A stretch of 64,000 nt of DNA from Gemmatimonadota bacterium (GTDB lineage: Bacteria > JAAXHH01): positions 19,267 to 83,266 of the forward strand of contig JAPOYX010000216.1 of assembly GCA_026706345.1 (NCBI GenBank). The letters run 5' to 3'. Positions 9,522 to 13,523 of this stretch are shown here, piece after piece. The first letter of the stretch is position 1. Each line of letters begins with the position of its first letter. A program made the translations under genes and the position numbers. The notes under the pieces are model-generated. The model was not told where the DNA came from. It worked only from the letters and a program-made list of their open reading frames with translations, and made no database searches.

Positions 9522-10721
9522 GTGCCTGGACGATCTCCTCTATCGAACCACGTGACGGAAGCAGCGAACCAGCTCGGATGGTGGCTGCGGCTTCCCCCGA
9601 CCAACCTGATAGATCGCGGCGATCACGTCCGTTTCCGCCACGCCCTCTACTTGATGATCCACCAGACCGCCACCGTACTCTACGGGATGAACGGCCTGCC
9701 GGAGATCATGTATTATCCGTCGCGGCTCGAAGGCGCGCGAAACCGGCTGAACGGGTTGTCACGGGCGCTGGAAAACGCAGGCGATGCCCTGTGGACGCTG
9801 GCGACCGAACGGGTACCTGAAAAGGCGTGGGCAGCCGCGTCCCGGCTGATGCGGGATACCCTGGCGTTGCTGCACGAATCCGGTGGCGATCATGGCACGT
9901 TGGACCAGGATATCGAGGAAGGGTCCTTCAAGCCGGATCAATCCCGGGATCCTGGTGAGCTGTACGCCTTGGCCGCCGAAATCGTGGAGAGGATCCGGCT
10001 GCTCGAGGGAACGAGCGCCGTGGCGCTGGGTGGATCCCTGGGAAGAGGTTACGCCGACCGCCAGTCGGACATCGACCTGCTCGTGTTCGGGCCGGGCATT
10101 CCCCGGGAGGCCGATCGCCGCCGGTTGATCTCGGCGTGGCCGGACATGCGGCACGGTCCCCTGATTGAGCCGGCCTGCGACAGCGTGGTGCTTGACGGGG
10201 CGATGGTCCACATCCGTTACTGGACCCGGCAGACCGTGGAAGATATGCTGAAGGCGTTTCCCAGGCCGCCCGAGCAGCGGATTCTCGCCGAAGAGTTGCA
10301 GTGCTGCCATGCGCTGGTCGATCCGGATGGTCGGCTGAGTGTGTGGCAGAATGTATTGGAAAAGTTACCCGCTGAATTGGTTAAAGCGGTGATCGGTGAA
10401 GCACAGGATCGGCTGCCCCTGTTTCGGAACCAGTGGCGAACGGCACAGGGCGCTGACGACCGGGGCCACCTTTACTGTCTGGCCAACCAGGCCGTGAACG
10501 ATTTACTGATCGCGCTGTACATAAGGAATGGACGGTTTCTGAGTACGCCTCGGTGGGTCCACAAAGATATCGGAGTGTGTGCTACCTTGCCAGCGGACCT
10601 GGGGGCGAATCTCTCTCGGCTCGTAGATGGGATCATCGACAGGGAAGATATGGTGGCCAGATGGACGGTACTGGAGGATCTGTGGGACAGGTCTGAATCT
10701 CTGCACACCACATTGGAGTGA
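9522..10721 (+). CDS. Nucleotidyltransferase-domain protein, unknown role
   Basis: A 399-residue protein with a Pol-beta-type nucleotidyltransferase core near the middle: ALGGSLGRGYADRQSDIDLL at residues 168-187 gives the GG-S and D-x-D metal ligands (Asp183, Asp185). The N-terminal ~150 residues and C-terminal ~170 residues are helical and resemble the substrate-binding or HEPN-like parts of stand-alone NTases. I do not recognise a specific substrate. The GTG at 9522 is listed; an in-frame GTG at 9552 is an equal candidate and neither has a strong ribosome site. It lies between the arg cluster and an AT-rich island that begins with a second NTase-like gene. Confidence 0.65.
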   Translation: MPGRSPLSNHVTEAANQLGWWLRLPPTNLIDRGDHVRFRHALYLMIHQTATVLYGMNGLPEIMYYPSRLEGARNRLNGLSRALENAGDALWTLATERVPEKAWAAASRLMRDTLALLHESGGDHGTLDQDIEEGSFKPDQSRDPGELYALAAEIVERIRLLEGTSAVALGGSLGRGYADRQSDIDLLVFGPGIPREADRRRLISAWPDMRHGPLIEPACDSVVLDGAMVHIRYWTRQTVEDMLKAFPRPPEQRILAEELQCCHALVDPDGRLSVWQNVLEKLPAELVKAVIGEAQDRLPLFRNQWRTAQGADDRGHLYCLANQAVNDLLIALYIRNGRFLSTPRWVHKDIGVCATLPADLGANLSRLVDGIIDREDMVARWTVLEDLWDRSESLHTTLE

Positions 10722-10768
10722 TGTCTCATCCATCTTTAGCTGCGAGATAAATCTGCAGATTGCGACTA

Positions 10769-10797
10769 TTGACAATGACTGTTCTAATTGACATTTT
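10769..10797 (+). promoter_or_regulatory. Possible promoter of the NTase/XRE pair
   Basis: TTGACA at 10769-10774 is followed after 17 bp by CATTTT at 10792-10797. A second ATTGACA starts at 10787, making a roughly 20-bp direct repeat of the hexamer. It lies 24 bp before the ATG at 10821, in DNA clearly AT-richer than the genes on its left. The -10 is poor. Confidence 0.35.
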
Positions 10798-10820
10798 TAA
10801 CACAATCAATATGTTGTGTA

Positions 10821-11261
10821 ATGATACCTGCTTTCGACAGTTCCGGAAACCTTCCTCCAGGTGTTTACTGGTCTGCCTGGGAAGAGGTGTCGACCAGATT
10901 TGGGACAAATCCATGGAGACGGTTAATTCTTTCCGGTCTTCGAGAAGCACTGTCGAATCTTAAACTTGCTGGTTGTCAAAAGGTCTATCTAGACGGTAGC
11001 TTTGTTTCCAGCAAGAACATGCCGAATGACTTCGATGCATGTTGGGATGAAAACGGAGTAAATCCGACTGTTCTTGACCCAATTCTGTTAACTTTTGATT
11101 CCGGCAGGGCTACCCAGAAAGCAAGGTACATGGGGGAGTTGTTTCCTGCCTCTGTTTCAGCAAATAACGACGGACTGTCATTCTATGAATTCTTCCAGAC
11201 AGACAAACACACTGGAAACAAAAAAGGGATAATCGCGCTGGATTTGGGAGATCTCAAATGA
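10821..11261 (+). CDS. DUF6932-like minimal nucleotidyltransferase, candidate toxin of an XRE pair
   Basis: A 146-residue protein starting MIPAFDSSGNLPPGVYWSAW, which I recognise as DUF6932-like. Residues 57-75 read LDGSFVSSKNMPNDFDACW, giving a GS-x10-D-x-D arrangement (Gly59-Ser60, Asp70, Asp72) typical of the minimal nucleotidyltransferase fold. The partner XRE gene starts inside its stop codon (ATGA overlap), so the two are translationally coupled. A small NTase with an HTH partner resembles toxin-antitoxin or MNT-type layouts, but activity is inferred. The ATG at 10821 is chosen because the conserved N-terminus starts there; the open frame extends to 10788. No clear ribosome site is seen, so it may be leaderless. 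Confidence 0.72.
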   Translation: MIPAFDSSGNLPPGVYWSAWEEVSTRFGTNPWRRLILSGLREALSNLKLAGCQKVYLDGSFVSSKNMPNDFDACWDENGVNPTVLDPILLTFDSGRATQKARYMGELFPASVSANNDGLSFYEFFQTDKHTGNKKGIIALDLGDLK

Positions 11262-11656
11262 TTAAGAACGAGAGACAATATCTAATCACCAAAGCACAGT
11301 TATCGCGATTCGTGCGTACCTTGGAAGGCCTGAGCGAAGAGGTGGGGGTACATCCGCTGATCCTGAAGGCGCAGAAAGATGCGGTGCGTAGCCAGCTTTG
11401 CGATTTGGAAGCAGACTTACGCGAATATGAATCATTGAAGGCAGGCAGATTCAAGTTGGAACAGCTTAAGACCGTCAGAGAAATACCGACCATACTGATC
11501 AAAGCGAGAATCGCTCAGGGCCTAAGCCAGAAAGACCTGGCGAAGCGGCTCGGTTTGAAAGAGCAACAGATACAGCGATACGAAGCGACTGACTATGCTT
11601 CCGCCAGGCTTACAAGAATACGCGAGATCGCTGAAGCCTTAGATATTGAATACTAA
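11258..11656 (+). CDS. XRE-family helix-turn-helix protein, candidate antitoxin/repressor
   Basis: A 132-residue protein with two parts. Residues 1-70 are predicted helical and charged (for example RSQLCDLEADLREYESLKAG) and may bind the partner. Residues 78-131 form a Cro/C1-type HTH: IKARIAQGLSQKDLAKRLGL, then KEQQIQRYEATDYASARLTR. Its ATG overlaps the stop of the preceding NTase gene by 4 bp. Antitoxin-second order with a DNA-binding C-terminus fits autoregulated pairs such as HigBA. Function is inferred from arrangement only. Confidence 0.8.
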   Translation: MIKNERQYLITKAQLSRFVRTLEGLSEEVGVHPLILKAQKDAVRSQLCDLEADLREYESLKAGRFKLEQLKTVREIPTILIKARIAQGLSQKDLAKRLGLKEQQIQRYEATDYASARLTRIREIAEALDIEY

Positions 11657-11765
11657 CCCAAACGAATTCGATCGAGTTGAACGTAACATTGGAATCAAGT
11701 GATTTGCACAGTACCACTAACAACGACTAATTCAAATGGATTGTTTAGCATAAGGAATTGTAGCG

Positions 11766-12385
11766 ATGGGACACACTGACCATGAAACAGACCAAACAGG
11801 TTGTGATGTCATGGAGGAGTTTCGAACCTTTCTTATTGAATTAGCAAACAACCTTACTTCTCATCTTGACATTCCTGAAGGTGTACCCAGTCAGTGGTGG
11901 TCTAGAGTCGATGAAGGCTCTCTTTTTCTTAACTCGAAAGAATATCAACAGTATAACCATATTCTACGAAAGTTGATGGAATCCGGTAGATGTGAATACC
12001 TATACAGTGCCCAACTGTCAACGTCCGCCAGGTTTGGGCGCGCATGGCCTCGCAACTAATCGCGAAATCTGAAGCAGCAAATAGCTGGGGAGGACGTACC
12101 ATTTGGATAGTTCAGGATTTGTTGGCTGATTACATTCGTACACAAACTGCTTTGCCACTAGATGATCTACACTCCCCAGATTGGATTCCGGATGAAGTAA
12201 ATATGGTTGTGGCGAATTTGAGTGGACCTGTTGCGCTGTATGCCGGACCTATCAGGCCACGAGGTAAAGATCAGGCATGCTGGATGGAAATACTAGGAGC
12301 CGCTCATTTACCGTCTAAAGAAGCAATCACAAGTAAACTACGAGAAAGGAATAACCTCACTTCCACACGTGTATCATTGGAATAG
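11766..12385 (+). pseudogene. Unknown island gene, apparently split by a frameshift
   Basis: Two overlapping open frames, 11766-12059 and 12044-12385, look like one gene. The first begins with an AAGGA ribosome site and ATG. Its last ~13 codons (TSARFGRAWPRN) look like out-of-frame sequence. In the second frame, sense codons extend upstream to 11996 and give TVNVRQVWARMASQLIAK leading smoothly into the WGGRTIWIVQDLLADYI segment. A single-base change near 12000-12030 would fuse them into about 205 residues. I do not recognise the family. Its position directly before vsr suggests a restriction endonuclease remnant, which is a guess. Confidence 0.5.
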
Positions 12386-12413
12386 AAGTCCCTAGTCGCT
12401 AGAGAATCCCGGT

Positions 12414-12860
12414 TTGAGATATTTAAGACAAAGCAGTCGTGATACACTAACTGTGCGAGAGCGTAGTGAGTTGATGGGCCGTATTCGATCCGTGAATACG
12501 AAGCCCGAGATGCGCGTACGGCGGCTGGTGCACGGTATGGGATACCGTTACCGTTTACACGCAAAGGATCTTCCGGGTCGACCGGATCTTGTATTCCGTC
12601 CACGACGCAAGGTCATCTTTGTTCACGGTTGTTTCTGGCATCGTCATAGAGGATGCTCAAATAACCGAATGCCGAAATCACCTGAACGGCTATTTTATTG
12701 GCGTAAAAAGTTGGATGGCAATGCTCAACGCGATAGGGAACATTATTCTGCTTTGCGGAGCATGGGGTGGCAGGTACTCGTGATCTGGGAATGCGAGACA
12801 AAGGAACCAGAATCCGTCAAAGAGAAAGTTAGAGCATTCCTAAAATATAACGAGGAATAA
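12414..12860 (+). CDS. vsr: Very short patch repair (Vsr) endonuclease
   Basis: Vsr nicks DNA next to T:G mismatches that arise by deamination of 5-methylcytosine. The 148-residue protein has the family order: LMGRIRSVNTKPEMRVRRLV near 20-39, GYRYRLHAKDLPGRPDLVFR with the catalytic Asp58, and KVIFVHGCFWHRHRGC (66-81) with the His and zinc-binding Cys residues. The listed start is a TTG at 12414; GTG 12453 would remove 13 non-conserved residues. Vsr normally sits beside a cytosine-5 methyltransferase. None is in the window, so it may be a leftover of an eroded restriction-modification locus. Confidence 0.9.
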   Translation: MRYLRQSSRDTLTVRERSELMGRIRSVNTKPEMRVRRLVHGMGYRYRLHAKDLPGRPDLVFRPRRKVIFVHGCFWHRHRGCSNNRMPKSPERLFYWRKKLDGNAQRDREHYSALRSMGWQVLVIWECETKEPESVKEKVRAFLKYNEE

Positions 12861-12986
12861 CGGCATCAGATTTCGCTAACTCCTGACTTCGCTTTAAGGT
12901 ACATCTTCGACGGTTAAACGAACTCATCATTGGCAACCTAGCTAAGAACCGGGTAGGTAGTAGTTCGAAGTCATAGCTTTACATCC

Positions 12987-13445
12987 CTAAATCCTCAATT
13001 CAAACCCATCCTCGGTCTGCCTCAAGCTCTCTGCTACCAGATCGTCGGATATCCGGACGACTACGCCGGAACCCGAATCGCCGATCGGCTCGAAGGATAC
13101 GCCGAGGTTTCTGTCCCTGCCCCCGGCCTGCGCGACGTCGACCACGAGCCTGTTGCGATCGGATGAAAACGTATCGAGCAGGCCTTCCGGAACGTCTACG
13201 TCATCCACGACGACGGTCAAACCCTCCGCATCCCACGATTCAATTACCCCGTCGAACCGGTTCAACGTCCATACGACCGGTTCATTCTCCTTCGTATTGA
13301 GTGAAACGATCCGTTCGTCCTCCATCACGACGCCGAGTCGCTCGCCGGCAACAAGCAGATGGGTGAGATCTTCCCTCGGTCCGCCGCATCCCATAGCGAT
13401 CAGCAGGGCAGCCAGAACGAAGTATCGCATGTTTATGTGGTACAT
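12987..13445 (-). CDS. Small lipoprotein of unknown function
   Basis: From an ATG at 13445 the protein is 152 residues with a lipoprotein signal: MYHINMRYFVLAALLIAMGC, lipobox LIAMGC, then Gly-Gly. A GGGAG ribosome site lies 6-7 nt before this ATG, which is why I prefer it over the longer frame starting at 13505. The mature part is rich in Asp, Glu and Val with predicted beta strands (for example GLTVVVDDVDV), and no family was recognised. It should be attached to the membrane on the periplasmic side. It follows the Gfo/Idh oxidoreductase by about 78 bp on the same strand. Confidence 0.65.
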   Translation of the reverse strand: MYHINMRYFVLAALLIAMGCGGPREDLTHLLVAGERLGVVMEDERIVSLNTKENEPVVWTLNRFDGVIESWDAEGLTVVVDDVDVPEGLLDTFSSDRNRLVVDVAQAGGRDRNLGVSFEPIGDSGSGVVVRISDDLVAESLRQTEDGFELRI

Positions 13446-13523
13446 GGTCGTCTCCCGGATGCAGCGCGCCGGTTGTGCTTCGCCGCCTGAATTCGCGTAC
13501 ATCACGCGTGGATCCCGCCTCGA

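What the first reader, a model, noticed from the sequence alone, without database searches (positions are those of the whole stretch)
10821..11656. Candidate uncharacterised toxin-antitoxin pair: DUF6932-like NTase with XRE partner
A minimal NTase (GS59-60, D70, D72) and an XRE protein overlap by 4 bp in an AT-rich island. The layout matches toxin-first, HTH-antitoxin-second systems. The XRE protein has a separate N-terminal helical half that could neutralise the NTase. I know of no described function for DUF6932.
Basis: partly seen in the sequence, partly recalled or inferred. Interest (0 to 1): 0.7.

Follow-up and report, generated by a model that had tools for sequence, protein, structure and literature searches.

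The report
Nucleotidyltransferase toxin with self-regulating antitoxin
Two overlapping small genes look like a mobile poison-and-antidote module in which an unstudied nucleotide-attaching enzyme (DUF6932) is the probable poison and its partner both neutralises it and switches the operon off at a conserved DNA site; this would give a function to a protein family that has none and that also appears in known anti-phage gene sets.

Summary
In detail: a DUF6932 nucleotidyltransferase (10821-11261, PF22014 E=1e-38) and a 132-aa hairpin+XRE protein (11258-11656) overlap by 4 nt in an AT-rich island. Toxin-antitoxin is the best reading. (1) The pair recurs across phyla; all 10 full-length hairpin-XRE matches in 301 Chloroflexota genomes abut DUF6932. 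(2) A palindrome, CACAA-n8-TTGTG, sits 2-3 nt before the DUF6932 start where the partner carries this type of HTH, not where the partner is hairpin-only; its outer base tends to track a recognition-helix residue, so the XRE very probably represses its own, probably leaderless, operon. (3) At the same chromosomal site genus-mates carry RelB-RelE, HEPN-MNT or other defence genes; one has a copy with the toxin's active site deleted and the XRE intact. (4) On plasmids DUF6932 takes the first-gene slot of PD-lambda-2-like defence operons. The partner's constant part appears to be the helical hairpin. Toxicity, substrate and polarity are unproven: in PD-lambda-2 the B protein was the toxic one, and an E. 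coli relative (PDC-M63AB) showed no phage defence. A new toxin family in a known kind of system.

The parts
10821..11261 (+). DUF6932 minimal nucleotidyltransferase (146 aa), proposed toxin
   Evidence: PF22014 E=1.2e-38; model pLDDT 91.4; top PDB fold matches are mostly nucleotidyltransferases, weak E
10995..11036 (+). NTase signature G59-S60 ... D70-x-D72
   Evidence: Invariant in alignments A3 and A5; D58-G59-S60, D70 and D72 kept in the divergent group too
11136..11138 (+). E106, proposed third catalytic acid, in strand 105-109
   Evidence: E or D in most relatives; strand position from model
11223..11228 (+). K135-G136, invariant lysine-glycine before the last strand
   Evidence: Invariant in A3 and A5, kept in nearly all of the divergent group
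11258..11656 (+). Hairpin + XRE helix-turn-helix protein (132 aa), proposed antitoxin and autorepressor
   Evidence: HTH_3 E=1.4e-11; 10 of 10 full hairpin matches in 301 Chloroflexota genomes abut DUF6932
11270..11440 (+). N-terminal two-helix hairpin (residues 5-61), proposed toxin-binding part
   Evidence: AlphaFold2 helices 5-25 and 33-61; hairpin-like stretch kept in partners lacking an HTH
11474..11638 (+). XRE/HipB-like HTH domain (residues 73-127) with recognition helix LGLKEQQIQRYE
   Evidence: Model; Foldseek top matches HipB; helix-operator covariation
10800..10819 (.). Operator ACACAA-n8-TTGTGT, ending one base before the start codon
   Evidence: Core found at two places in the 4.49-Mb genome; conserved in position and sequence
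10788..10815 (+). Promoter-like TTGACA-16-TATGTT; the -10 lies inside the operator, 5 nt before ATG, so probably a leaderless mRNA
   Evidence: same layout in most XRE-class loci
10722..12986 (.). Variable AT-rich cassette site between two conserved chromosomal genes
   Evidence: Flanks align at 78-91% to genus-mates, which carry other cargo here

Best explanation
A mobile two-gene toxin-antitoxin module. The first gene makes a minimal nucleotidyltransferase (inferred toxin) that adds a nucleotide to a cellular target, most plausibly the acceptor end of tRNA, and so stops growth. The second makes an antitoxin whose N-terminal helical hairpin holds the toxin inactive (inferred) and whose XRE domain binds the palindrome at the start codon and shuts the operon's leaderless promoter (strongly supported by sequence, not measured). 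Loss of antitoxin would both free the toxin and de-repress the operon. The cassette lies at a chromosomal site that exchanges toxin-antitoxin and defence cargo, so its role is probably anti-phage or stabilisation of mobile DNA.
For: Linkage across phyla. Operator 2-3 nt before the start in 15 of 18 XRE-class loci against one differently placed match in 16 hairpin-only loci; observed mean 8.7/10 against a null of 5.7, maximum 6.4 in 1000 shuffled sets. Outer operator base tracks the recognition-helix residue: E with C, A with T, K with G (Fisher p=0.003 on hand-grouped, not fully independent loci). NTase fold with conserved GS, DxD, E/D and K-G. Toxin lost with antitoxin kept: G005 lacks the active site, XRE intact; viral contig L085 keeps only residues 103-145. 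Site exchange with RelB-RelE and HEPN-MNT. Two-gene copies on cyanobacterial plasmids. DUF6932 in slot A of PD-lambda-2-like operons. Purifying selection on both genes: dN/dS 0.19 and 0.08.
Against: No toxicity data. In PD-lambda-2, XRE-peptidase B was toxic and A rescued it (PMC9519451), and in HEPN-MNT modules the NTase is the antitoxin, so polarity could be reversed. E. coli PDC-M63AB gave no phage-defence phenotype (PMC12409345). Foldseek E-values are weak (best 0.12). Hairpin-XRE proteins also occur without DUF6932. Nothing identifies the substrate.
Confidence: 0.72

Rival explanations
1. Reversed polarity: DUF6932 is the antitoxin and modifies or sequesters the XRE partner, as MntA does to HepT or as gene A does to B in PD-lambda-2.
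For: In PD-lambda-2, A rescued cells from toxic B (PMC9519451); B homologues with DUF6932 as first gene exist; the MNT of HEPN-MNT is named an adenylyltransferase antitoxin.
Against: The window's partner lacks the peptidase; some partners are about 80-aa hairpins with no effector domain; decayed copies lose DUF6932 and keep the XRE; hairpin-XRE genes persist alone.
Confidence: 0.13
2. An abortive-infection defence operon rather than a simple addiction module: the hairpin protein is a regulator that senses infection and releases the NTase effector. This overlaps with the best explanation and differs in what triggers it.
For: PADLOC PDC-M63A match; PD-lambda-2 B and C genes next to DUF6932; defence cargo at the same site in relatives.
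Against: The window's pair has no sensor domain beyond the HTH; PDC-M63AB deletion changed no phage infection in E. coli NILS69 (PMC12409345).
Confidence: 0.35
3. Housekeeping or resistance enzyme with its own repressor, for example a nucleotidyltransferase that inactivates an antibiotic, not a toxin.
For: AadA-type adenylyltransferases are among the weak fold matches; an XRE repressor could control a resistance gene.
Against: No large substrate-binding domain; partners include HTH-free hairpins; TA-like decay and site exchange.
Confidence: 0.08

Closest known systems
PD-lambda-2 (Vassallo et al. 2022, PMC9519451)
   Same: Plasmid and prophage relatives have the hairpin-XRE-ImmA/IrrE gene (PD-Lambda-2_B, E to 6e-80) and the beta-protein gene (PD-Lambda-2_C, E to 1e-50) directly after DUF6932.
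   Different: The published gene A is HigB-like, not DUF6932; the window's pair has no peptidase and no third gene.
PADLOC candidate PDC-M63 (A+B)
   Same: P0001 matches PDC-M63A (E=1.3e-10); L031 matches it at 7e-20 and its partner weakly matches the N-terminus of PDC-M63B (E=0.01).
   Different: P0002 does not match PDC-M63B; PDC-M63 has no demonstrated activity.
HEPN-MNT (type VII) modules
   Same: Minimal nucleotidyltransferase plus small helical partner; the same chromosomal site carries one in G009 and G011.
   Different: The partner is hairpin+XRE, not HEPN; the NTase gene comes first.
HipBA / HigBA type II systems
   Same: XRE antitoxin that autoregulates through an operator palindrome; the HTH fold is closest to HipB.
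   Different: The toxin is a nucleotidyltransferase, not a HipA kinase or RelE-fold nuclease.
MenAT / AbiE nucleotidyltransferase toxins
   Same: Nucleotidyltransferase as toxin (MenT1 extends tRNA acceptor stems, PMC10435456 title and abstract).
   Different: P0001 hits no AbiEii/MenT family and is a much smaller, single-domain protein.

Membership tests
DUF6932 (PF22014) | Match above the Pfam gathering cut-off over the whole profile | tested here: met
   133 bits against 27, positions 1-141 of 142
Pol-beta-type nucleotidyltransferase | GS motif, DxD and third acid on the palm sheet | tested here: met
   GS59-60, D70, D72, E106 conserved; strands 54-58, 71-75, 105-109. Fold-match E-values weak
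Type II toxin-antitoxin system | Compact co-directional operon of two small proteins, mobile and patchy | tested here: met
   4-nt overlap; 2 of 16 genomes of the phylum match; other cargo at the site in genus-mates
Type II toxin-antitoxin system | Antitoxin binds its own promoter | tested here: inconclusive
   Conserved operator plus helix-operator covariation; no binding assay
Type II toxin-antitoxin system | Toxin inhibits growth and the antitoxin neutralises it by binding | not testable with these tools
   Needs expression and pull-down
PD-lambda-2 | HigB-like gene A | tested here: not met
   Gene A is DUF6932; no PD-lambda-2_A match
PD-lambda-2 | XRE-peptidase B and beta-protein C | tested here: not met
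   Absent in the window; present in relatives L008 and L082
PDC-M63 | PDC-M63A and PDC-M63B side by side | tested here: not met
   A matches, B does not
HEPN-MNT (type VII) | HEPN-domain partner | tested here: not met
   P0002 hits only HTH-type families; two-helix hairpin
MenAT / AbiE | AbiEii/MenT family toxin | tested here: not met
   No such hit for P0001 in Pfam or NCBIfam

The most novel reading that the evidence does not exclude
DUF6932 is an interchangeable nucleotidyltransferase toxin family whose antitoxin is a short helical hairpin grafted onto swappable regulators (nothing, XRE, XRE plus ImmA/IrrE peptidase with a beta protein), so the same toxin core serves as a plasmid addiction module and as the effector of PD-lambda-2-like anti-phage systems.
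Probability: 0.45. Interest if true: 0.75.

Novelty: new variant of a known kind. Interest (0 to 1): 0.6.

Why it matters
It would give a function to DUF6932, for which no paper was found in the library searched, and add a small nucleotidyltransferase toxin family paired with XRE antitoxins. It predicts a precise operator and the residues that read it, offers an explanation for the PADLOC candidate PDC-M63, and suggests that PD-lambda-2-type defence operons can swap their first gene. The genus-level exchange of unrelated modules at one site is a natural experiment on how toxin-antitoxin cassettes move and decay.

Tried and rejected
No relative of P0001 or P0002 was found in annotated phage records. 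A single-sequence scan of viral contigs found nothing; an alignment query found four loci. HEPN identity of the hairpin-only partners was considered because a few have R-x4-H or R-x6-Y, but the motif is not conserved and the stretch is only two helices, so it was rejected. Homology between the hairpin-only partners and the XRE-class hairpin is only suggestive (hhalign E=6e-4, probability 28%). The longer TTG start at 10788 was rejected because operator, promoter and alignments support ATG 10821. A sequence search of the PDB with the DUF6932 profile gave nothing; the viral fold library gave no clear match. Papers naming DUF6932 or PF22014: none.

Full report
What is there. ORF 10821-11261 encodes a 146-aa DUF6932 protein (PF22014, E=1.2e-38); 11258-11656 encodes a 132-aa protein with an XRE HTH at residues 81-131. 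They overlap by ATGA. The segment of about 10.7-13.0 kb is 43-48% GC against 59-67% around it.

The enzyme. In ten relatives D58-G59-S60, D70, D72, E106 and K135-G136 are invariant; in a divergent Chloroflexota group the GS, DxD and nearly always the KG motif persist, and E106 is mostly replaced by D. A five-sequence AlphaFold2 model is confident (pLDDT 91.4) and places DxD at strand 71-75 and E106 in strand 105-109. The best PDB matches are mostly nucleotidyltransferases (2rff, the MNT antitoxin 8xeo, HI0073 1no5, Pol mu, AadA), with weak E-values (0.12 and above). An active pol-beta-type minimal nucleotidyltransferase is therefore likely, but shown only by motif and fold.

The partner. The model shows a helical hairpin (5-25, 33-61) followed by a HipB-like HTH. 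Three main partner types follow DUF6932: hairpin+XRE (window, G010, SAR202 L003, other Chloroflexota, some cyanobacterial plasmids); hairpin+XRE+ImmA/IrrE peptidase (L004-L008, L082, L083, L101); and short hairpin-like proteins of about 70-90 aa without HTH (L022, L025-L027, L030-L034, L036). A profile of the hairpin region found 10 full-length matches in 301 Chloroflexota genomes, all abutting DUF6932, plus two partial ones. Among 31 plasmid records with a P0002 relative, all with at least 41% identity adjoin DUF6932; several weaker ones do not. That the hairpin-only partners are homologous to the XRE-class hairpin is suggestive, not shown.

The operator. ACACAA-n8-TTGTGT at 10800-10819 ends one base before the start codon. 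Its core occurs at two places in the 4.49-Mb genome. In 18 XRE-class loci, 15 score at least 8/10 (mean 8.7; shuffled sets 5.7, maximum 6.4), nearly always 2-3 nt before the start; among 16 hairpin-only loci one scored 8, at another position, mean 6.0. The pattern was taken from the window and then tested on the others, but the set includes one genus-mate and some related loci. Where the recognition helix reads KEQQ the outer base is C (CACAA), with KAQQ it is T (TACAA), with KKQQ it is G (GACAA: L019 by script, L083 read by eye from the sequence); KPQQ occurs with both C and T; L015 is an exception; diverged helices (L096, L100, L102, L104, L006) lack the site. Fisher p=0.003 on a hand-grouped table, not corrected for relatedness. 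XRE-peptidase genes without DUF6932 keep the site (L109, L111, L112). Most loci have a sigma-70-like promoter whose -10 lies inside the operator 5-7 nt before the start, implying a leaderless mRNA repressed by its own product. This is inference from sequence; no binding was measured.

The site. The upstream NTP_transf_2 gene (9522-10721) and the downstream lipoprotein-like gene (12987-13505) are conserved in genus-mates. Between them: G010 carries the same pair; G005 the pair with about 225 nt deleted across the DUF6932 active site and the XRE reading frame intact; G006 RelB-RelE; G008 RelB with truncated RelE; G004 RelB alone; G009 and G011 HEPN-MNT; G002 a NACHT protein and a type ISP restriction enzyme; G003 further defence-like genes. 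Exchange of unrelated toxin-antitoxin modules at one site, with toxins decaying first, is the strongest context argument. A viral contig (L085) likewise keeps only residues 103-145 of DUF6932 before an intact hairpin-XRE gene.

Relation to known systems. P0001 matches PADLOC PDC-M63A. PDC-M63AB was deleted in E. coli NILS69 without effect on ten phages (PMC12409345). In L008 and L082 DUF6932 is followed by PD-Lambda-2_B and _C homologues; in published PD-lambda-2, A is HigB-like, B is an XRE-peptidase, and B was toxic with A rescuing (PMC9519451). So DUF6932 takes the A slot, but which gene is the toxin must not be assumed from that system. For the window's pair the partner has no effector domain, hairpin-only partners exist, and decayed copies lose DUF6932, which favours DUF6932 as toxin. 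Makarova et al. list XRE-peptidase fusions with RelE and PIN toxins and MNT with HEPN, not this combination, in the passages read (PMC2701414).

Mechanism. Shown: gene layout, conservation, operator conservation, site exchange. Strongly inferred: autorepression by the XRE protein; nucleotidyltransferase activity. Inferred: the hairpin neutralises the enzyme; the enzyme is toxic. Speculative: the target is the tRNA acceptor end (by analogy with MenT1, PMC10435456), with protein nucleotidylation as the alternative. Novelty: a new toxin family in a known kind of module.

Noticed in passing
window 12414-12860: Vsr mismatch endonuclease (TIGR00632 E=6e-38) next to the pair, without a DNA methylase beside it; two C5-cytosine methylases lie on other contigs. 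G010 and G005 lack this insert.
   Followed up: partly
window 11766-12385: Two overlapping small ORFs between the pair and vsr with no family match; possibly one frameshifted gene.
   Followed up: no
L054-L060 and L064-L066 (G002-G011), between homologues of window 10721 and 12987: Chromosomal hotspot exchanging RelB-RelE, HEPN-MNT, NACHT, type ISP restriction and other defence-like genes among genus-mates.
   Followed up: yes
L006 4001-5908 (Acinetobacter pittii NDM-1 plasmid): DUF6932 plus PD-Lambda-2_B lie between Tn7-like tnsE and an IS30/blaNDM-1 segment; the C gene is cut to 66 aa.
   Followed up: partly
L085 2365-3103 (IMG/VR contig): Phage-borne intact hairpin-XRE gene with only a 43-residue DUF6932 remnant behind an integrase; could act as an orphan antitoxin against the module.
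   Followed up: partly
L097 3495-4670 (Aliarcobacter plasmid): DUF6932-like domain fused to what looks like an alpha/beta hydrolase (IAHSFG motif), with no hairpin partner annotated.
   Followed up: no
window 10821-11656 against G010: Synonymous divergence differs between the adjacent genes (dS 0.19 for DUF6932, 0.71 for XRE), perhaps recombination.
   Followed up: no
L016 (G217) partner gene: Hairpin-XRE joined to a C-terminal domain with a Walker A-like GRRGSGKS motif, a further partner architecture.
   Followed up: no
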